Origin: Curtobacterium sp. SGAir0471
GTDB lineage: Bacteria; Actinomycetota; Actinomycetes; Actinomycetales; Microbacteriaceae
Direction: 5' to 3'
NCBI RefSeq assembly: GCF_005490985.1
Contig: NZ_CP027869.1
Location: 930,001-994,000 of the forward strand
Length of the DNA stretch: 64,000 nucleotides
Part shown: one piece after another, positions 38,255-58,184 of the stretch
Position numbering within the stretch: position 1 is the first letter of the stretch
Layout of the letters: each line of letters begins with the position of its first letter
Made by a program: the position numbers and the translations under genes
Notes under the pieces: generated by a model
What the model was told of the DNA's origin: nothing
Seen by the model: only the letters and a program-made list of their open reading frames with translations
The model's database searches: none

Positions 38255-39130
38255 ATGCACGCACGCACCTCCGCCCCGAACGCCGCGCCCAGCACCACCG
38301 CCCGCACCACCGCCCGCCGCACGGCCCGCCGCCCGGTCGTCGTGGCCGGGATCGCCGCGGCCATCGTCGCCGCCACCGTCGGCCTCGCCGCACCGCAGAC
38401 CGCCTCGGCCGCGACCGGCACCGACGAGGGCTGGCTCCGCGTCGGCCACCTCTCCCCGGACACCAAGGGCGTCGACGTCGAGCTCACGAGCCTGTCCGGC
38501 GGCAAGACGGTCTTCGAGCTCGACGACGTCACGTACGGCCAGGTCAGCCCGTACCAGGAGCTCCCGGTCGGCACCTACGTCCTGTCGATGCGCGCCGCCG
38601 ACGCCCCCGACTCCACCCCGGTGATCTCGACCGACGTCCAGGTGCAGGAGGGCAACGCGAGCACGGTCGTCGCCTACGGCAAGAACGCCGACCTGAAGAC
38701 CACGGCGTTCTCCGACGATCTGCAGCAGCCCGGCGACGGCAAGGCAAAGCTCCGGCTCGTGCAGGCTGCGACCACCGCGAAGGCGGTCGACGTCAGCACC
38801 ACCGACGGCACCGCCATCGCCGAGGACGCCGCCTTCGGTACCGCGACGCAGTACGCCACTGTCGGCGCCGGCAAGTGGGATCTCGACGTCTCGGGCAGCG
38901 GCCAGCGCGGCACCGCCGAGGTCGACCTCGCCGGCAACACCGTCTCCACGCTCTTCGTCCTCGACGACAGCAAGGGCGACCTGACCGTCGTGCCCGTCAC
39001 CGACGCGGCCGCCACGGCAGCGACCCCGTCCGGCGGCGTCCAGACCGGTGGCGGCGGCGCGGCCGCCGACCGTCCCTTCACCGAGTTCACGCACGCGGTC
39101 GTCGCGGCGTTCCGCTCGCTGTTCCACTGA
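38255..39130 (+). CDS. Secreted DUF4397 surface protein
   Basis: A 291-residue exported protein. A long basic n-region precedes the signal helix VVVAGIAAAIVAATVGLA, with cleavage likely near TASA-A (~50). The DUF4397 beta-domain follows (~56-165: WLRVGHLSPDTKGVDVELT...LPVGTYVLSMRAAD), then a second related beta half to ~245. The C-terminus has GGVQTGGGG and then a short hydrophobic/aromatic end. No LPxTG is present. ATG follows GAAGGAG. With the class F sortase two genes on, it is the best candidate sortase substrate in the window (inference). Confidence 0.88.
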   Translation: MHARTSAPNAAPSTTARTTARRTARRPVVVAGIAAAIVAATVGLAAPQTASAATGTDEGWLRVGHLSPDTKGVDVELTSLSGGKTVFELDDVTYGQVSPYQELPVGTYVLSMRAADAPDSTPVISTDVQVQEGNASTVVAYGKNADLKTTAFSDDLQQPGDGKAKLRLVQAATTAKAVDVSTTDGTAIAEDAAFGTATQYATVGAGKWDLDVSGSGQRGTAEVDLAGNTVSTLFVLDDSKGDLTVVPVTDAAATAATPSGGVQTGGGGAAADRPFTEFTHAVVAAFRSLFH

Positions 39131-39136
39131 CCGACG

Positions 39137-39222
39137 GGCCGCCGACGGGTCGCGTGACCCGTCGGGCCCGGCCTGGAGGCGCGGATCACCGCAGCCGGTC
39201 CGCCCACGTGCACCGCGCCTCC
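39137..39222. terminator. Double hairpin after DUF4397
   Basis: First hairpin: arms 39143-39151 and 39156-39164 (CGACGGGTC), 4-nt loop, with further pairing outside. The second belongs to the GGAGGC family: arms 39175-39184 and 39213-39222 (GGAGGCGCGG and complement). Confidence 0.65.
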
Positions 39223-39261
39223 CGTCCGACCGTCCCCGACCACCCCGGAAGAGGTGCCGGC

Positions 39262-40413
39262 ATGACCCGCAGGACCTGGATCCCCATCACCGCCGCGGCG
39301 GCGCTCGTCGTCGCCGTGGGCGTCGCCCTCGTCGCCGTCCGTCCCTGGGGCGACTCCGCGCCACAGGCCGGGACGACGTCGAGCGCGACCTCGTCGCCGG
39401 CGCCCGACGTCGACCGCAGCGCGGCGCAGCTCCGCACGGACTTCCTCGACGACTACGTGCGGGACGGGCGCGTCGTCCGCACCGACCAGGGCGGCGACAC
39501 CGTCAGCGAGGGGCAGGCGTACGGCCTGCTCATCGCGTACGCCAACGACGACCGGAAGACCTTCGGGGAGATCTGGTCGTGGACGGAGCGACACCTGGTG
39601 ACGGACGACGACCTGCTCGCGTGGCGGTGGACCCCCGAGGACGGCGTCGCCGACGAGCAGTCCGCGAGCGACGCCGACCTCGACACGGCCAGGGCCCTCG
39701 TGCTCGCGGGGGAGCGCTGGGACGACGAGCGGTACACGACGGCGGGGAAGGCCGTGGCGTCGGCGATCCTCGAGCACGAGACCGCGACGACCGACCTCGG
39801 CACGATCCTGCTGCCGGGGCCGTGGGCGGACAGCGAGCCCTACCGGTACAACGCCTCGTACGCGTCGCCGGCGGCGTTCCGGATCCTCGAGCGGGCCACC
39901 GGTGACCGGCGGTGGACCGAGCTCGAGCGGGGCTCGTCGGCCGCGACCGCCGCCGTGCTCGACGAGAGCGACCTGCCGAGCGACTGGTCGCAGGTGCACG
40001 CGGACGGCTCGGTCGACCCGATGCCGGCCACGGGTGACCAGGGGAGCGTCGTCTACGGGTGGGAGGCCATGCGCCTGCCGCTGCGCTACGCAGAGGCCTG
40101 CTCCGCGGACGACCGTGCCCTCGCCGGCTCCGTCGCGCCGACCCTCGAACGGAGCACGCAGCTCGCGGCGCAGCTCGACCTCGGCGGGACGGCCGTGACC
40201 GGGGACACGAGCGGGCTGGCCTACGCGGCCCGAGCAGCCGCGGAGCAGGCCGCGGGATCCTCCGCGGCTGCTGCCGCCGACCTGCGTCGGATGGACCGGA
40301 CGGCGGCGACCACGCCGACCTACTACGGCGATGCGTGGGCGGCGCTCGGTGCGACCATGCTCACGTCGGACGTCCTCGGAGGCTGCGCGACCGAGGCGGG
40401 AGGAGCCTCGTGA
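39262..40413 (+). CDS. Glycoside hydrolase family 8 protein, membrane-anchored or secreted
   Basis: A 383-residue GH8 enzyme, the family of endoglucanases and of the BcsZ cellulase tied to polymer synthesis. An N-terminal helix (ITAAAALVVAVGVALVAV) anchors or exports it. Catalytic Glu83 is in VSEGQAYGLLIAY. ASDADLDTARALVLAGERW (135-153) matches the GH8 signature with the Asp pair. YRYNASYASPAAFRI and TYYGDAWAALG are substrate-cleft segments. It lies between DUF4397 and the sortase (4-bp overlap with the latter) in the block carrying the GT2 synthase, so a polymer-trimming role is plausible. Confidence 0.88.
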   Translation: MTRRTWIPITAAAALVVAVGVALVAVRPWGDSAPQAGTTSSATSSPAPDVDRSAAQLRTDFLDDYVRDGRVVRTDQGGDTVSEGQAYGLLIAYANDDRKTFGEIWSWTERHLVTDDDLLAWRWTPEDGVADEQSASDADLDTARALVLAGERWDDERYTTAGKAVASAILEHETATTDLGTILLPGPWADSEPYRYNASYASPAAFRILERATGDRRWTELERGSSAATAAVLDESDLPSDWSQVHADGSVDPMPATGDQGSVVYGWEAMRLPLRYAEACSADDRALAGSVAPTLERSTQLAAQLDLGGTAVTGDTSGLAYAARAAAEQAAGSSAAAAADLRRMDRTAATTPTYYGDAWAALGATMLTSDVLGGCATEAGGAS

Positions 40414-46418: not shown

Positions 46419-48742
<2,324 letters not shown>

Positions 48743-48858
48743 ACGGTCCTCCAGGTGTGGGTTTCGTCAACATATCGGCGCGAGCCTCCGGCGTCCGCAG
48801 ACAAGCCACAGCCGTGGACACCGCGGGCCCGACCCCACCCTGTGGAGGAACCGCCGAG

Positions 48859-48864
48859 TAGCCT
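48859..48864 (+). promoter_or_regulatory. Candidate -10 box before the GerW-like gene
   Basis: TAGCCT lies 7 nt before the ATG at 48872, again the leaderless layout. A GTGGAGGAA at ~48842 is too far to be the ribosome site. Confidence 0.3.
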
Positions 48865-48871
48865 CGCGCGC

Positions 48872-49192
48872 ATGGCCAACATCGTGAGTCAGATCGCAGA
48901 CAAGGTGCGCCCGGTGGGCGTCTCGACGAACTACGGGGAGCCGGTCGAGGTCGGCGACCAGACCCTGATCCCGGTGTCGATCGGCTGGTTCGGCTTCGGC
49001 GCCGGCGGCGACGACGAGAACGGCGGTGGCGGCGGTGGCGGCGCATCGATCCCCGTCGGCGCCTACGTGCGCCGCCCCGGACAGGACCTGCAGTTCGAGC
49101 CCAACCTCATCTCGCTGCTCGCGGTGAGCATCCCGACCATCTGGGTGACCGGCAAGGCCCTGAGCAAGGTGATCCGCGCCCTCAAGAAGTGA
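48872..49192 (+). CDS. GerW/YtfJ-like small protein
   Basis: A 106-residue protein with the GerW (YtfJ) family layout: IADKVRPVGVSTNYGEPVEVGDQTLIPVSIGWFGFGAG, a Gly-rich loop with seven consecutive glycines, and PVGAYVRRPGQDLQFEPNLISLLA, ending in a hydrophobic helix (LLAVSIPTIWVTGKALSKVI) and lysines. YtfJ works in Bacillus spore germination, but actinobacterial homologues occur in non-sporulating species and their role is unknown. It is divergent from treX and followed by a GGAGGC-family hairpin. Confidence 0.8.
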   Translation: MANIVSQIADKVRPVGVSTNYGEPVEVGDQTLIPVSIGWFGFGAGGDDENGGGGGGGASIPVGAYVRRPGQDLQFEPNLISLLAVSIPTIWVTGKALSKVIRALKK

Positions 49193-49197
49193 ACCAC

Positions 49198-49241
49198 CGG
49201 ACGGGAGGCCCGTGGCGACGCCGCCACGGGCCTCCCGTCCG
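49198..49241. terminator. 20-bp perfect hairpin after the GerW-like gene (GGAGGC family)
   Basis: Arms 49198-49217 and 49222-49241 (CGGACGGGAGGCCCG...), 4-nt loop, 5 bp after the stop codon. Confidence 0.8.
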
Positions 49242-49274
49242 TCACGTGCACGCGTCACACGACGTGACCGCGTC

Positions 49275-49280
49275 TAGACT
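49275..49280 (+). promoter_or_regulatory. Candidate -10 box of the thiamine-regulated operon
   Basis: TAGACT just upstream of the riboswitch aptamer, so that transcription would begin at its 5' edge. The -35 is not clear. Confidence 0.45.
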
Positions 49281-49293
49281 GCTGCCACACACA

Positions 49294-49380
49294 CGGGAGT
49301 CCGGGACCGCCGGGCTGAGAGGGAGCGAACGGCGCTCCGACCGTCGAACCTGATCCGGGTCATGCCGGCGCAGGGAGGAG
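49294..49380 (+). ncRNA. TPP riboswitch (THI element)
   Basis: All conserved blocks are present and in order: GGGAGTCC, CTGAGA (49315-49320) followed by GGG, a variable stem, ACCTGATCCGGGTCATGCC (49348-49366) and GCAGGGAGG. The terminal GGGAGGAG (49373-49380) is also the ribosome site of ykoE, ATG at 49390. This suggests control of translation: thiamine pyrophosphate binding would hide the site. No separate intrinsic terminator is seen. Confidence 0.95.
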
Positions 49381-49389
49381 TCAGCAACC

Positions 49390-50109
49390 ATGCCTGCAAC
49401 CACGCAGTCCGCAGTACCGTCCACCGCCCCGAAGCGCTCGTTGCGCTGGCGGGTCGTCGACATCGTCGTCGCCAGCGTCCTCGCCGTCGCGATCGGCGTC
49501 GTCTTCAAGCTCTGGGAGTTCGGCTACGAGCCGATCAGCGCCGTCGCCGGTCTGGTCCTGCCCGGCACCCAGGCGCTCTTCGGCGGGGTCTGGCTGCTCG
49601 CCGGACCGGTCGTCGCGATCGTCGTCCGGAAGCCCGGCGCCGCGCTCTACGCCGAGATGGTCGCCGCCAGCGTCGAGGCGCTGCTCGGCACGCAGTGGGG
49701 GTGGCTGACGCTCGAGGCCGGCCTCGTGCAGGGCCTCGGTGCCGAGCTCGTGCTCGCGCTGTTCCTGTACCGCGCCTACCGCCTGCCGGTCGTCGTGCTC
49801 GCCGGTGCCGCCGCCGGCCTCGCCCTCGGCATCAACGACACGGTGCTCTGGTACCCGGGCCTCGACGCCGCCTTCAAGACCGTCTACGTCGTGTCCGCCG
49901 TGGTGTCCGGCGCCGTGATCGCCGGACTCGGCTCGTGGCTGCTCGTCCGGGCGCTCGCCGCGACCGGGGTGCTCTCCTCGTTCGCAGCGGGGCGTGAGCA
50001 CGCTCGACGGTCGCAGGCCCCGGGGACGACCTCGGCGGACGCGGTGGCCACCGACACCGAGACGCCTGCCGCCGAGCAGGCCGAGCGCGGGTCCCGCGCC
50101 GCCCGGTGA
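49390..50109 (+). CDS. ykoE: ECF transporter S component YkoE (thiamine/HMP type)
   Basis: The substrate-binding membrane subunit of an energy-coupling-factor importer. 239 residues: after ~20 cytoplasmic residues come about five helices, with VVDIVVASVLAVAIGVVFKLWEFGY, GGVWLLAGPVVAIVVRKPGAALYAEMVAASVEALLGTQWG and ALGINDTVLWYPGLD, a pattern typical of YkoE. The last ~45 residues are hydrophilic, Ala/Thr/Glu-rich. It lies directly under a TPP riboswitch, so the substrate should be thiamine or its hydroxymethylpyrimidine precursor. The stop overlaps the ykoD start by 4 bp. Confidence 0.93.
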   Translation: MPATTQSAVPSTAPKRSLRWRVVDIVVASVLAVAIGVVFKLWEFGYEPISAVAGLVLPGTQALFGGVWLLAGPVVAIVVRKPGAALYAEMVAASVEALLGTQWGWLTLEAGLVQGLGAELVLALFLYRAYRLPVVVLAGAAAGLALGINDTVLWYPGLDAAFKTVYVVSAVVSGAVIAGLGSWLLVRALAATGVLSSFAAGREHARRSQAPGTTSADAVATDTETPAAEQAERGSRAAR

Positions 50110-53345: not shown

Positions 53346-53390
53346 GGAGGGGCGGGCCGGCGGCGACTCGTCCGGCGAGTTCACGCGCCC

Positions 53391-53430
53391 AGCGACACCT
53401 CACGCCCGTCGGGACCCGTGAAGTGTCGCT
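53391..53430. terminator. Hairpin between convergent genes (AGCGACA family)
   Basis: 14-bp arms 53391-53404 and 53417-53430 (AGCGACACCTCACG and near-complement, one G-U pair), between the kinase and the convergent MHS transporter. Confidence 0.7.
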
Positions 53431-53442
53431 GAGCGCGTGGAG

Positions 53443-54813
53443 TCACTCGGCGCGACCGGCGCCGCCGCGCGGACTGACGTCCACCCGCCGCGCGTCCCGC
53501 ACCGGGTCCACCGCGAACACCGCCGCCACGACCGAGAGCACCGCGTACACCCCGAGGTACGCGCACAGGATCCACGGCGAACCCCCGCCCACCTCGACGA
53601 ACACCGCCGCGAGCAACGGCGTCAACCCCACCGAGAAGATCGACCCGATCTGGTAGCCGAGACTCATCCCCGAGTAGCGCCGACCCGTCGGGAACTGCTC
53701 CGCGAACCACGCCGCCTGCGGCCCGTAGATGCTGTCGTGGAACACGCTCATGCCGATCAGCGCCACGAGGGGGAGCAGCACGAGGGGCCCGGCGTCGAGG
53801 AACGCGAAGAACGGCCAGATCAGCACCGCGATCCCGACCGCCGACCCGATCGCGAGCGGCCGGCGCCCGACACGGTCCGACAACCACCCCCAGAACGGCG
53901 TCGACACGAGGGACACCGCCGAGATCACGAGCACCGCCTGCAGGCCTGCGGCCGACCCCTCCTCGCCGCGCTTCGCCCCGAGGTACGTCAGCGAGTACGT
54001 CGTCAGGATCGAGTACAGCGCCGGCTGCACGAGCCGCAGCCCGGCGGTCACCAGGATCGACCGCGGGTGTCGGCGGACCGCCTGCCACACCGGGAACCGC
54101 TCGACACCACCGGACGCGCGCAGCTCCTGGAACACCGGGGCGTCCTGGACGCCGAGCCGGATGACGAGCCCGACCGCGACGATCACCGCCGAGAACAGGA
54201 ACGGCAGTCGCCAGCCCCACGCCAGGAACGCATCGTTGCCGAGCACGGTCCGCACGAGCGTGAAGACCCCGGTCGCCAGGAGCATCCCGCCCGCGGATCC
54301 CATCTGGGTGAACGCCCCGAACAGACCCCGGTGCCGCACCGGCGCGTGCTCGACCGACAGCAGCGCCGACCCGCCCCACTCGGCACCCGCGGCGACACCC
54401 TGCAGCAGCCGCAGGACCACGAGCGCGACGACCGCCCCGACGCCGATCGTCGCCGCAGAGGGGATCACCCCGATGAGCGTCGACGCGATCCCCATGAGCA
54501 CGAGCGACGCGACGAGCAGCTTCTTCCGCCCGATCCGGTCACCCAGATGCCCGGCCACGATGCCGCCGAGCGGCCGCGCCACGAACCCGACGCCGTAGGT
54601 CGCGAACGACGCGATGACCCCGACCGCGGGCGTCACGGTCGGGAAGAACGTGGGTGCGAAGACGAGCGCCGAGGCCGTCGCGTACAGGTAGAAGTCGTAG
54701 TACTCGACGGTCGTCCCGACGAACGACGCGAGGGCGACGCGACGTCGGGTCGCGTTCGTCGACGGATCGGTGGGACGGACGGGAGGCGCGGCTGCGGTCG
54801 TCTGGATCGGCAT
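53443..54813 (-). CDS. MHS-family MFS transporter (metabolite:H+ symporter)
   Basis: A 456-residue transporter with 12 helices of the MHS (proline/betaine, citrate, shikimate) branch. It starts with ALASFVGTTVEYYDFYLYATASALVFAPTFFP, then GDRIGRKKLLVASLVLMGIAST, RLLQGVAAGAEWGGSALLSVEHAP and WGWLSDRVGRRPLAIGSAVG. ATG at 54813 is preferred: the frame stays open upstream but that part is not protein-like. The first ~20 residues overlap half of a GACGGGAGGC repeat. It is divergent from the monooxygenase genes across 100 bp, so it may import their substrate. Confidence 0.9.
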   Translation of the reverse strand: MPIQTTAAAPPVRPTDPSTNATRRRVALASFVGTTVEYYDFYLYATASALVFAPTFFPTVTPAVGVIASFATYGVGFVARPLGGIVAGHLGDRIGRKKLLVASLVLMGIASTLIGVIPSAATIGVGAVVALVVLRLLQGVAAGAEWGGSALLSVEHAPVRHRGLFGAFTQMGSAGGMLLATGVFTLVRTVLGNDAFLAWGWRLPFLFSAVIVAVGLVIRLGVQDAPVFQELRASGGVERFPVWQAVRRHPRSILVTAGLRLVQPALYSILTTYSLTYLGAKRGEEGSAAGLQAVLVISAVSLVSTPFWGWLSDRVGRRPLAIGSAVGIAVLIWPFFAFLDAGPLVLLPLVALIGMSVFHDSIYGPQAAWFAEQFPTGRRYSGMSLGYQIGSIFSVGLTPLLAAVFVEVGGGSPWILCAYLGVYAVLSVVAAVFAVDPVRDARRVDVSPRGGAGRAE

Positions 54814-54913
54814 GACCCAGGAGCATGGTCGCCGCCCGGCCCCGACGGAACACCGCCCGTAACGCGAGGTCACGTCACGTCGCCGGCGCGGCATCGGTCG
54901 ACACCATGGATCC

Positions 54914-56402
54914 ATGAGCGATGCACCGATCCGTCCGCTGCGCTTCGCGGCCTTCGTCATGAACACGACGTCGCACATCCAGCACGGCCTCTGGCGGCAC
55001 CCCGAGGCGCGGCAGGCCGACTTCGACGACGTGACGCTGTGGACCGACCTCGCGAAGACGCTCGAGCGCGGAAAGTTCGATGCGATGTTCTTCGCGGACG
55101 TCGTCGGCACGTACGGGCCCGCCCGCGGCGACTACTCGACAAACCTCCGCGAGGGCCTCCAGATCCCCTCGAACGACCCGTCCGTCCTGCTCTCCGCGCT
55201 CGCCGTGTCCACGGAGCACCTCGGCCTGGCATTCACCTCGAGCGTCATCCAGGCGCACCCGTTCGACTTCGCCCGCAAGGTCTCGACGCTCGACCACATC
55301 ACCCGCGGCCGCATCGGCTGGAACGTCGTCACGAGCGCCCTCGACAGCGCCGCCCGCAACTTCGGGGCCGACCGGCTCGAGGAGCACGACGAGCGCTACG
55401 CCTGGGCCGAGGAGTACCTCGAGGTCTGCGCGAAGCTCTGGGAGGGGTCGTGGGACGACGGTGCCGTCCTCAAGGACCCGGTGCGCGGGTACGCCGACCC
55501 GGAGAAGGTGCACCGCATCGACCACCACGGGAAGCGGTACGACGTGCAGGGTCCGCACCTCAGCGCCCCATCGCCGCAGCGTACGCCGGTGCTGTTCCAG
55601 GCAGGGTCCTCGCCGGCCGGTCGGGCCTTCGCCGCGCGGAACGCCGAGGCCCAGTTCATCCTCACCTCCAACCGCGACGCCACCGAGCAGCTCATCCACG
55701 AGACCCGCGACCTCGCGGCCGCAGCCGGCCGACGCCGGGAGGACATCGCCTTCTTCCTCGGCCTGACCTTCGTCACCGGGTCCACCGAGGCCGAGGCGAA
55801 GGCCAAGGAGGCGGAGATCGACGAGTACCTCGCAGCCGACGGGTTCCTCGTGCACTCGAACCTCGGCTTCGACCCCGACACCGGCGAACCGCTCGACCCC
55901 GCGACGCCGCTGTCCGAGGTCCGGACGCACGCCGGGCAGTCGCACCTCCAGTGGCTCCGCGAGGCCGCCGGCGACCGTGAGCCGACCATCGCCGACCTCG
56001 CCCGGCTGTCCGCCAAGCTCCGCGCCCGCGTCGTCGGGACGCCCGAGCAGATCGCCGACGAGCTCGCCGCGTGGCAGCACGTCGGTGTCGACGGGGTGAA
56101 CGTCATCAACTGGACGCTGCCCGGCTCGTACGAGGAATTCGTGGACGACATCGCGCCGACCCTGCAGCAGCGGGGACTCATGCAGTCCGAGTACCGGGAG
56201 GGCAGGCACCCTGCGCGAGAAGCTCTTCGGCCACGCGCAGCTGCCGGACTCCCACCCGGCCAGGCGGTGGCGCGGGGCGTTCTCCGGCGGGTCGAGCGGG
56301 TCCGGCGGGTCCGGCGTGACTGGCGTGACTGGCGGGTCCGGCGCGTCCGGCGACGCGACGGGCTCGGACGGCGGGCGCGACGCCGTGGAGGTGACCGCGT
56401 GA
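54914..56402 (+). pseudogene. NtaA/SnaA/SoxA-type flavin monooxygenase with a C-terminal frameshift
   Basis: An FMNH2-dependent (LLM class) monooxygenase like those for nitrilotriacetate or dibenzothiophene sulfone. Residues 1-430 are intact: FAAFVMNTTSHIQHGLWRHP, DFARKVSTLDHITRGRIGWNVVTS, FQAGSSPAGRAFAARNAEAQF and GVDGVNVINWTLPGSYEEFVDDIAP. After YREG (codon 430) a tandem GGCAGGCA at 56201-56208 shifts the frame. Removing one GGCA restores GTLREKLFGHAQLPDSHPARRW and a ~65-residue tail, ending at TGA 56400-56402 in a GTGA overlap with the next gene. As written, the frame instead runs on into that gene to give one 917-residue product. Confidence 0.8.
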
Positions 56403-57667
56403 CCGACGCGACGACGACCGACGGGGCTGCTCCGCGCCTCCAGACCGACCGGCTGACGGCCCTGCGGAACCACTTCGCCCCGGTCTTCGGCCGCATCCGC
56501 GAGGGGGCCGTCGGGCGCGAGCTGGCGTCCGGGAGCCCGGGGGAGCGGCAGCTGCCGCACGCCGAGGTCCGGGCACTCGCGGAGGCGGGCTTCGGTCGCC
56601 TCCGCGTGCCCGAGGACCGCGGCGGCTTCGGTGTGACGCTCGTGGAGCTGGCGCACCTGGTGGCGGACCTCGCGGCGGCGGACTCGAACATCGCGCACCT
56701 GTGGCGCGGGCACTTCGGGTACACCGAACTCGTGCTCCTGCGTCCGGATTCGCCCGGTCGTGATGAGTGGCTGCAGCGGATCGTCGACGGGGCGGTCGTG
56801 GGGAACGCGACCTCGGAGCGGACCGGCACCACGCTCGCGGACATCTCGACGACCGTCGCGCCCGACGCCGACGGGACGTGGCGGCTCGACGGGCGGAAGT
56901 TCTACTCGACCGGCACGCTCTACGCCGACTGGATCTACCTGGCGGCCGACCGCGACGGCGAGCGGGTGACGTTCGCGGTGCCCACGGACGCGCCCGGCGT
57001 CACCGGGGTCGACGACTGGGACGGGTTCGGGCAGCGGCTCACCGCCTCGGGGACGACGGTCTTCGACGGCGTCGCGGTCGACGAGTCGGTGATCTCGGGG
57101 TACCGGGACGCGCCGCTGTCGCACATCCAGGCCTTCTACCAGCTGTACCTGCTGGCGGTGCTCGCGGGGATCGGGCAGGCCGTCGTCGACGACGCGGTGG
57201 CGTTCGTCCGACCGCGGACCCGGACGTACATCCACGCGAACGCCGCCGTACCGGGGGACGACCCGCAGGTGCTCGCCGTGCTCGGGCGCCTGTCGTCGGG
57301 GGCGTTCACGGCTCGGTCGCTCGTCGCTGCGGCGGCCGGGCTGCTCGACGGGGTCGTGGCGACCAACGTGCCGGGGGTCGGCGTCGACCACGCGGTGCTC
57401 GACGCGGCCGAGAACGCCGTCTACCAGGCGCAGGTCGAGGTCGGGCCGCGGGTGCTGCGGGCGGCAACGGAGCTGTTCGAGGTCGGCGGGGCCTCGGCGG
57501 CGGACCGGACCCGGGCGCTCGACCGGCACTGGCGGAACGCGCGGGTCGTGGCGTCGCACAACCCGGCCGTGTACAAGGAGCGGCTCGTGGGCGAGTACGT
57601 GCTGCACGGGCGGGGGCCGGTCGACGCGTGGGAGCGGTACCACGAGGTTGGGCCGACGCGGTTCTGA
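56399..57667 (+). CDS. Acyl-CoA dehydrogenase-family flavoprotein (SfnB/DszC-like)
   Basis: A 422-residue protein of the acyl-CoA dehydrogenase fold, most like flavin monooxygenases of the DszC/SfnB type that use FMNH2 on sulfur or aromatic compounds. Seen: RLRVPEDRGGFGVTLVELAHLVADLAAADSNIAHLWRGHFGY, GNATSERTG, WRLDGRKFYSTGTLYADWIYLAA and the C-terminal ASHNPAVYKERLVGEYVLHGR. GTG at 56399 overlaps the restored monooxygenase stop. It is in the same frame as the shifted upstream gene, so in this sequence it also forms the C-terminal half of a fused frame. A role in scavenging sulfur is inferred. Confidence 0.82.
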   Translation: MTDATTTDGAAPRLQTDRLTALRNHFAPVFGRIREGAVGRELASGSPGERQLPHAEVRALAEAGFGRLRVPEDRGGFGVTLVELAHLVADLAAADSNIAHLWRGHFGYTELVLLRPDSPGRDEWLQRIVDGAVVGNATSERTGTTLADISTTVAPDADGTWRLDGRKFYSTGTLYADWIYLAADRDGERVTFAVPTDAPGVTGVDDWDGFGQRLTASGTTVFDGVAVDESVISGYRDAPLSHIQAFYQLYLLAVLAGIGQAVVDDAVAFVRPRTRTYIHANAAVPGDDPQVLAVLGRLSSGAFTARSLVAAAAGLLDGVVATNVPGVGVDHAVLDAAENAVYQAQVEVGPRVLRAATELFEVGGASAADRTRALDRHWRNARVVASHNPAVYKERLVGEYVLHGRGPVDAWERYHEVGPTRF

Positions 57668-57682
57668 GGGCCAGGCGGCGCG

Positions 57683-57738
57683 GCGCGCGTGCGCGGGTGC
57701 GCGGGTGCGCGGGTGCGCGCGTGCGCGCGTGCGCGGGC
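57683..57738. repeat. Seven 8-bp GCGCGSGT repeats
   Basis: Contiguous units from 57683, alternating GCGCGGGT and GCGCGCGT, nearly pure purine-pyrimidine alternation and able to adopt Z-DNA. It starts 15 bp after the dehydrogenase-like stop. Confidence 0.85.
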
Positions 57739-57744
57739 GAGTCT

Positions 57745-57798
57745 CGCGCTCAGCGACGGTTCTCGGGCTCGTTCGCCCGCGATGCGTCGCTGAGCGCG
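57745..57798. terminator. 14-bp perfect hairpin (AGCGAC family)
   Basis: Arms 57745-57758 and 57785-57798 (CGCGCTCAGCGACG and complement), 26-nt loop, between the dehydrogenase-like gene and the convergent metallopeptidase gene. Confidence 0.7.
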
Positions 57799-57839
57799 GG
57801 CCTCGGTCGACCACTGCGCTGCGCCGCGCTGCGCTGCGG

Positions 57840-58184
57840 CTACGCCCAGCCGAGCTCGTGCAGCCGGGCGTCGTCGATGCCGTAGAAGTGCCCGATCTCG
57901 TGGACGAGCGTGGTGTGCACCTCGTCCCGGAGCTCCTCGACGGTGTCGCACTCCTCCAAGTGCTGCTTGCGGAACACCACGATCCGGTCCGGCAGCTCAC
58001 CGAACCCGTACTGCCCGCGCTCGGTCGCGGCGACCCCCTCGTAGACGCCGAACAGGTCGGAGCCGTCCTCGGGTTCGTCCTCGACGACGAACACCACGTT
58101 GTCGAGCCCGTCGACCATCTCGTCGGGCAGCAGGTCGAGCTCGTCGGTCACGAGCTGCTCGAACTCGTCGGCGGACATCTCCAT
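57840..58184 (-). CDS. Small zinc metallopeptidase-like protein (zincin)
   Basis: A 114-residue protein of the actinobacterial minimal-zincin family. The zinc motif HTTLVHEIGHFYGID (residues 90-104) holds HEIGH (95-99) and a third ligand Asp104, the HExxHxxxxxD pattern. It starts MEMSADEFEQLVTDELDLLPDEM and is acidic throughout. Function unknown; a housekeeping protease or chaperone role is possible. ATG at 58184 is preferred over the longer frame that crosses the tRNA terminator. It sits directly downstream of tRNA-His on the same strand. Confidence 0.85.
   Translation of the reverse strand: MEMSADEFEQLVTDELDLLPDEMVDGLDNVVFVVEDEPEDGSDLFGVYEGVAATERGQYGFGELPDRIVVFRKQHLEECDTVEELRDEVHTTLVHEIGHFYGIDDARLHELGWA

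What the first reader, a model, noticed from the sequence alone, without database searches (positions are those of the whole stretch)
54914..57667. A 4-bp duplication fuses a flavin monooxygenase with an acyl-CoA-dehydrogenase-like enzyme
At 56201-56208 the sequence reads GGCAGGCA. Removing one GGCA restores the family C-terminus (GTLREKLFG...LPDSHPARRW) and a stop that overlaps the next gene's GTG by 4 bp. With the duplication, the frame runs without a stop into the next gene, giving a 917-residue fusion. This is either a slipped-strand mutation, a phase-variable switch, or a sequencing error. If real, it could create a single-chain two-flavoenzyme protein.
Basis: partly seen in the sequence, partly recalled or inferred. 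Interest (0 to 1): 0.75.

Follow-up and report, generated by a model that had tools for sequence, protein, structure and literature searches.

The report
Frameshift joins two neighbouring enzyme genes
In one Curtobacterium genome a four-letter repeat shifts the reading frame near the end of one enzyme gene so that it runs into the next gene; the relatives examined lack the repeat, so this looks like a one-off mutation (or a sequencing slip) and not a designed double enzyme.

Summary
GGCAGGCA lies at 56201-56208 and an uninterrupted 917-codon frame runs 54914-57667. It joins an NtaA/DmoA-family flavin monooxygenase (LLM) to an SfnB/DszC-like acyl-CoA-dehydrogenase-fold enzyme (ACAD). Of 47 other congeners searched, 21 carry the pair; 21 of 21 have the unit once, end the monooxygenase in its own frame, and overlap the next start by 4 bp. 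In 80 of 80 wider loci the monooxygenase also ends separately with its conserved tail. The long open frame is a by-product of GC-rich sequence: the downstream frame is already open across this point in 19 of 21 relatives. The joined chain loses a conserved tail and gains a 65-residue linker, 38% arginine. In-frame LLM-ACAD fusions are listed elsewhere (5 proteins); four of five keep the tail motif. Best reading: a recent, strain-specific 4-bp tandem duplication that damages the monooxygenase gene; the ACAD probably still starts from its own site. Sequencing error is not excluded without reads. Phase variation and a selected bifunctional enzyme are unsupported.

The parts
54914..56200 (+). Monooxygenase core (residues 1-429), NtaA/DmoA-family luciferase-like monooxygenase
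   Evidence: TIGR03860 481 bits against cut-off 279.7; PF00296 151.6 bits; nearest solved structures HcbA1, LadA, DmoA (run with the protein of congener locus L009)
56201..56208 (+). Two tandem copies of a 4-base unit; congeners have one
   Evidence: 21 of 21 congener loci single; gap in the pairwise alignment with G039
56205..56402 (+). Conserved monooxygenase tail, variable Gly/Ser-rich end and stop, now out of frame with the core
   Evidence: tail in 80 of 80 loci and in the 35-row alignment A2
56204..56398 (+). Same stretch as read in the joined frame: Arg-rich linker, residues 431-495
   Evidence: 25 Arg among these 65 residues; pLDDT below 50 at 440-475 and 477-508 in the joined model
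56387..56394 (+). GGAGGTGA, Shine-Dalgarno-like; its GGAGG ends 7 nt before the ACAD start
   Evidence: read; GGAGG kept in 20 of 21 congeners, L022 being the exception; that it binds ribosomes is inferred
56399..57667 (+). SfnB/DszC-like ACAD-fold flavoenzyme, own GTG start, 422 aa
   Evidence: TIGR04022 273.4 bits, below its 430.9 equivalog cut-off; NF043015 DszC 124.6 bits, cut-off 850
54914..57667 (+). Joined open frame, 917 aa

Best explanation
A recent, strain-specific 4-bp tandem duplication, of the kind replication slippage makes, lies near the 3' end of a monooxygenase gene that is normally a separate gene overlapping the ACAD gene by 4 bp. It puts the last 64 native codons out of frame, takes the native stop out of the reading path, and enters the frame of the downstream gene, which in this GC-rich genus is mostly already open across the junction. 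Predicted products: a ~100 kDa joined chain in which the monooxygenase lacks its conserved tail and is probably impaired, plus ACAD made on its own from its own GTG and GGAGGTGA. Shown: the sequence, the comparison, the loss of the tail. Inferred: slippage, impaired activity, internal initiation, and that the base call is real.
For: 21 of 21 congener loci single-copy and unfused; 80 of 80 wider loci stop separately with the tail in frame, 40 of the 80 with an ACAD-like match just downstream on the same strand. Among the 39 proteins listed for the 917-aa query (7984 candidates scored) none is a near-identical fused form, the best full-length one being about 40% identical over 98%, while a 447-member cluster with a 480-aa separate monooxygenase matches the core at 96%. 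The core shows no decay: 11 window-only substitutions in 1287 bases, 8 at third codon positions, none in the conserved tail, against 11 of the 21 congeners, so the event is recent. Against artefact: G000 is one contig, 100% complete, 0.13% contaminated; in 204 kb compared with G039 no other single small indel between two well-conserved halves was found with the lesion in G000, with one more complex exception told below. PMC3711429 holds that a singleton frameshift near a gene's 3' end is more likely an indel than a sequencing error (section 29 read).
Against: No reads and no second strain of the species were available. The same section of PMC3711429 expects protein-validated singleton frameshifts to be sequencing errors rather than true indels. 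The absence of decay fits a sequencing error equally well. One other gene in the sample (G000 about 48490-49600, minus strand) is one frame in G039 but two in G000, with differences of 24, 2 and 1 bases, the last in a G run; whether that is mutation or error is not settled. I lowered this confidence from 0.72 to 0.70 for it.
Confidence: 0.7

Rival explanations
1. Sequencing or assembly error: the strain has the unit once and makes two ordinary proteins.
For: Single genome; both native frames intact with no other lesion; PMC3711429 expects many singleton frameshifts to be errors; a second frame break in the G000 sample includes a one-base difference in a G run; a poor congener assembly with a frame-split monooxygenase exists (G025, 65% complete, L022).
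Against: An exact 4-base tandem duplication away from a homopolymer is not the usual long-read error (recalled, and the sequencing method is unknown). G000 is 100% complete. The 204 kb sample shows no comparable clean small indel in G000, though that test misses short shifts near gene ends.
Confidence: 0.25
2. Phase-variable switch: the unit gains and loses copies, toggling between separate and joined proteins.
For: It is a direct tandem repeat near a gene end; the joined and separate frames are both open.
Against: Only two copies; two-copy 4-bp tandems are as common as chance (275 against 304.9 +/- 17.3); 21 of 21 congeners have one copy, so no tract is maintained. A known tetranucleotide switch has many copies (more than 30 AGTC units in the Haemophilus mod gene, PMC3711429 passage).
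Confidence: 0.02
3. A useful new bifunctional enzyme: the joined chain is expressed, folded, active in both halves and kept by selection.
For: LLM-ACAD chains are listed elsewhere: P0002, P0004, P0005, P0006, P0018 carry both domain sets, so the two enzymes seem to tolerate being one chain.
Against: Four of those five keep a G(T/S)LRxK(L/W)F(G/D) tail before the linker; the fifth, P0018, has a diverged TLRS version. The window chain loses it and has an Arg-rich, low-confidence linker. The tail is confidently modelled in a congener (block pLDDT 91-93 for residues 421-450), and solved relatives align to the model past it (HcbA1 to its residue 451, LadA to 434).
Confidence: 0.03

Closest known systems
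NtaA/DmoA-family FMN monooxygenases (TIGR03860; HcbA1 6LR1, LadA 3B9N, DmoA 6AK1, RcaE 5W48, BdsA 5XKC)
   Same: The core passes the family cut-off; a congener's full protein aligns to HcbA1 and LadA through the tail.
   Different: The window chain lacks the native C-terminal tail from residue 431.
SfnB (TIGR04022) and DszC (NF043015) ACAD-fold oxidoreductases
   Same: Best family matches of the ACAD half; DszC-type enzymes and a methanesulfinate monooxygenase are the nearest solved structures by sequence.
   Different: Below both equivalog cut-offs, so a relative, not a confirmed SfnB or DszC.
In-frame LLM-ACAD fusion proteins (P0002 Streptomyces sp. CA-253872; P0004-P0006 and P0018, organisms not named)
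   Same: Same order of domains in one chain, 835-898 aa.
   Different: 37-43% identical in alignment A1; tail kept in four of five; shorter, ordinary linkers. The window's joining is a separate event by frameshift. Their own DNA was not inspected.
Singleton frameshift genes of prokaryote genomes (PMC3711429)
   Same: One genome only, near the 3' end, between two adjacent overlapping genes.
   Different: Here the shifted frame runs into the next gene without a stop, so it also looks like a gene fusion.

Membership tests
NtaA/DmoA family monooxygenase | TIGR03860 above curated cut-off | tested here: met
   481 against 279.7 bits
NtaA/DmoA family monooxygenase | Conserved C-terminal tail (G430, R433, G438, H446, R452 invariant in the 35 rows aligned) | tested here: not met
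   In the joined chain only the glycine at 430 remains; the rest is out of frame. Present in the DNA in another frame
SfnB | TIGR04022 equivalog cut-off | tested here: not met
   273.4 against 430.9 bits
DszC dibenzothiophene monooxygenase | NF043015 equivalog cut-off | tested here: not met
   124.6 against 850 bits
In-frame LLM-ACAD fusion proteins | Monooxygenase tail kept before the linker (four of five members found) | tested here: not met
In-frame LLM-ACAD fusion proteins | Fusion shared by close relatives | tested here: not met
   0 of 21 congener loci fused
Simple-repeat phase variation | Long or variable-copy repeat tract | tested here: not met
   two copies here; one copy in 21 of 21 congeners
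Simple-repeat phase variation | Both states found within one strain or species | not testable with these tools
   no reads, no second strain of the species
Programmed ribosomal frameshifting | Site conserved among orthologues | tested here: not met
   doubled unit absent in 21 of 21 congeners
Sequencing error | Absent from raw reads or re-sequencing | not testable with these tools
   no reads held

The most novel reading that the evidence does not exclude
The joined frame is a gene fusion caught at birth: the strain makes a working ~100 kDa two-flavoenzyme chain (with some free ACAD from the internal start), an independent, frameshift-made parallel to the LLM-ACAD fusions found in distant bacteria.
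Probability: 0.04. Interest if true: 0.55.

Novelty: new member of a known kind. Interest (0 to 1): 0.2.

Why it matters
Mostly a caution: a 917-codon open frame in GC-rich DNA is not evidence of a fusion protein, since the downstream frame is open across the junction in 19 of 21 relatives that lack the duplication. A modest positive point is that LLM-ACAD and TauD-ACAD chains are listed elsewhere, which links these enzymes functionally and shows what a genuine junction looks like.

Tried and rejected
Looked for a genuine fusion in the genus and beyond: none in the 21 congener loci or in the 80 loci kept of 96 found in genome contigs (40 of the 80 have an ACAD-like match just downstream, so only those test the junction directly). 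A class-wide search with P0004 (59 of 394 genomes matched at E <= 1e-80) gave one near full-length row, G313/L140, but on reading it is two adjacent genes in one frame separated by stops. The viral collection had no match. A consensus scan found no sigma-70-like promoter and no terminator-like site in 54600-57850. The genome-wide frameshift rate could not be measured; a 204 kb sample was used. Of its other split rows, seven places were aligned: hypervariable repeat or divergent stretches, an over-extended start beside AT-rich DNA, two single-base losses in G039, a shadow frame between two intact genes (G000 2585 kb, settled), and one probable frame break in G000 (48490-49600). Two rows were not aligned separately: the opposite-strand shadow of that last place and an over-extended minus-strand start next to the target. 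The model of the joined chain (6 rows, mean pLDDT 68) is too weak to judge domain packing and was used only for the linker; it is not comparable in depth with the 35-row congener model. Literature: one search found 0 papers with all its terms; one search listed 4 papers holding at least 4 of 5 terms, none opened; two searches listed nothing that was used. No report of such a fusion was seen in these, which is no proof of absence.

Full report
WHAT IS THERE. The window is G000:C1:930001-994000, in a single-contig genome of 3,531,991 bases, 100% complete. The nearest named relatives are Curtobacterium. At 56201-56208 the sequence reads GGCAGGCA, and a frame from ATG 54914 to the stop ending at 57667 is open for 917 codons. 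Its first half is an NtaA/DmoA-family luciferase-like monooxygenase (TIGR03860, 481 bits, cut-off 279.7). Its second half is an ACAD-fold enzyme closest to SfnB and DszC, but below both equivalog cut-offs.

IS IT MORE THAN CHANCE. As a repeat, no: the window holds 275 two-copy 4-bp tandems against 304.9 +/- 17.3 in 50 first-order Markov simulations. As a difference from relatives, yes. Of 47 other genomes of the genus searched, 21 carry the pair (in G022 a contig end cuts the ACAD, and in the poor assembly G025 the monooxygenase is itself split over frames); in the listed rows the other 26 show only weaker, partial matches or none. In 21 of 21 the unit is single, the tail and stop are in the monooxygenase's own frame, and the stop overlaps the ATG/GTG of the ACAD by 4 bp. 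In the 80 loci kept of 96 found in genome contigs (some are the same species as the 21), 80 of 80 monooxygenases stop separately and carry the tail G(T/S)xR...H...(Y/W/F)R or a close version; 40 of the 80 have an ACAD-like match just downstream on the same strand.

WHY THE FRAME STAYS OPEN. In 19 of the 21 congeners the ACAD frame is already open upstream across the equivalent of the duplication; L010 and L026 are the exceptions. The uninterrupted 917 codons therefore need no special explanation.

WHAT IS LOST AND GAINED. The native tail follows residue 430. In a 35-row alignment G430, R433, G438, H446 and R452 are invariant (35 of the 80 loci were given to it); the joined chain keeps only the glycine. 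A congener's model places the tail in the folded part (block pLDDT 93, 92, 91 for residues 421-450; 458-475 is below 50). Solved relatives align to the model past it: HcbA1 to its residue 451, LadA to 434, BdsA to 450, whereas the SsuD/MsuD, SfnG and luciferase rows end at model residues 418-431 (ranges give first and last aligned residues only). For LadA, a review (PMC3604635, passages seen) notes a C-terminal extension to the barrel and that disrupting the dimer abolishes activity; that the tail serves the dimer here is not shown. The linker gained, residues 431-495, has 25 Arg in 65 and low confidence in the joined model. I infer that the monooxygenase half is probably impaired.

THE ACAD HALF. 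GGAGGTGA lies at 56387-56394, its GGAGG ending 7 nt before GTG 56399; GGAGG is kept in 20 of 21 congeners. Translation from this site on its own is therefore likely, alongside the joined chain; this is inference.

AGE AND CAUSE. Against 11 of the 21 congeners (positions where at least 8 have a base and all agree) the core has 11 window-only substitutions in 1287 bases, 8 in third positions; the ACAD has 8 in 1266, 4 in third positions; none fall in the conserved tail. So the gene was under constraint until very recently, which fits a fresh mutation and fits a sequencing error equally. To judge the assembly I compared 204 kb of G000 with syntenic G039 DNA: 4 split rows among 139 matched G039 coding-like ORFs (of 197), and 7 rows (6 ORFs, the target included) among 150 matched G000 coding-like ORFs (of 200). 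Seven of these other places were aligned. Most are divergent or repeat-rich stretches, over-extended starts or shadow frames (one, at G000 2585 kb, lies between two intact genes); one is two single-base losses in G039. One, at G000 about 48490-49600 on the minus strand, does look like a gene whole in G039 and broken in G000, by differences of 24, 2 and 1 bases; it is a result against a flawless assembly, or a second real lesion. The test misses shifts near gene ends; the target showed in one direction only. PMC3711429 (passages, section 29) cuts both ways: singleton frameshifts with protein support are expected to be sequencing errors, yet those near the 3' end are more likely true indels. On account of the 48490-49600 place I moved 0.02 from mutation to error.

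FUSIONS ELSEWHERE. Five carry both domain sets (P0002, P0004, P0005, P0006, P0018). P0002 and P0004-P0006 keep a G(T/S)LRxK(L/W)F(G/D) tail before the linker, and P0018 has a diverged TLRS version. Three of them (P0004-P0006) are related to each other and have clean linkers, which is why I take them as genuine; their DNA was not inspected, and P0002 rests on one member. No listed protein is a near-identical fused form. The separate form is held as a cluster of 447 members with a 480-aa representative at 96% identity (P0041). In G313 the two genes sit in one frame with stops between (L140). The window's joined frame is thus not a member of that fusion group.

FUNCTION OF THE PAIR. DszA-like LLM plus DszC/SfnB-like ACAD enzymes act in organosulfur use; [quoted passage not shown] For this pair the substrate is unknown; an organosulfur or other small organic compound is an inference from the families.

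VERDICT. A correct and well-read observation of an ordinary event: probably a recent strain-specific 4-bp duplication (0.70), possibly a sequencing error (0.25); phase variation (0.02) and a selected bifunctional enzyme (0.03) are unlikely.

Noticed in passing
57749-57793: Inverted repeat (CTCAGCGACG ... CGTCGCTGA, with a GC-rich middle) just after the ACAD gene; may be a two-way terminator or a REP-like element. A looser relative of its arms (CCCAGCGACAC ... GTGTCGCTGAGCGC) lies about 53388-53436 on the other side of the upstream minus-strand gene.
   Followed up: partly
P0026, P0027, P0029, P0031, P0035, P0036: ACAD fused in frame to a TauD-family dioxygenase, about 715 aa, in six listed proteins including one from Paraburkholderia; the same ACAD type is thus joined to two unrelated oxygenase types.
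   Followed up: partly
56283-56398 and congener loci L009-L029: After the conserved RGAF the monooxygenase ends in a Gly/Ser/Ala-rich stretch that differs strongly in length between congeners; the window has extra repeat units there.
   Followed up: no
G000:C1 about 48490-49600, minus strand (L122): A gene that is one frame in G039 appears as two frames in G000, with differences of 24, 2 and 1 bases; mutation or error not settled.
   Followed up: partly
G039:C1:939230 and 939336 (orthologue of window 38874-40413): Two single-base losses beside short G and C runs split the gene in G039 while it is whole in the window; may be errors in G039.
   Followed up: no
L022 (G025): The monooxygenase is broken over two frames in a single-contig genome that is only 65% complete, probably an error-rich assembly.
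   Followed up: no
P0015: A 915-aa protein whose sequence reads as two luciferase-like monooxygenase domains in tandem.
   Followed up: no
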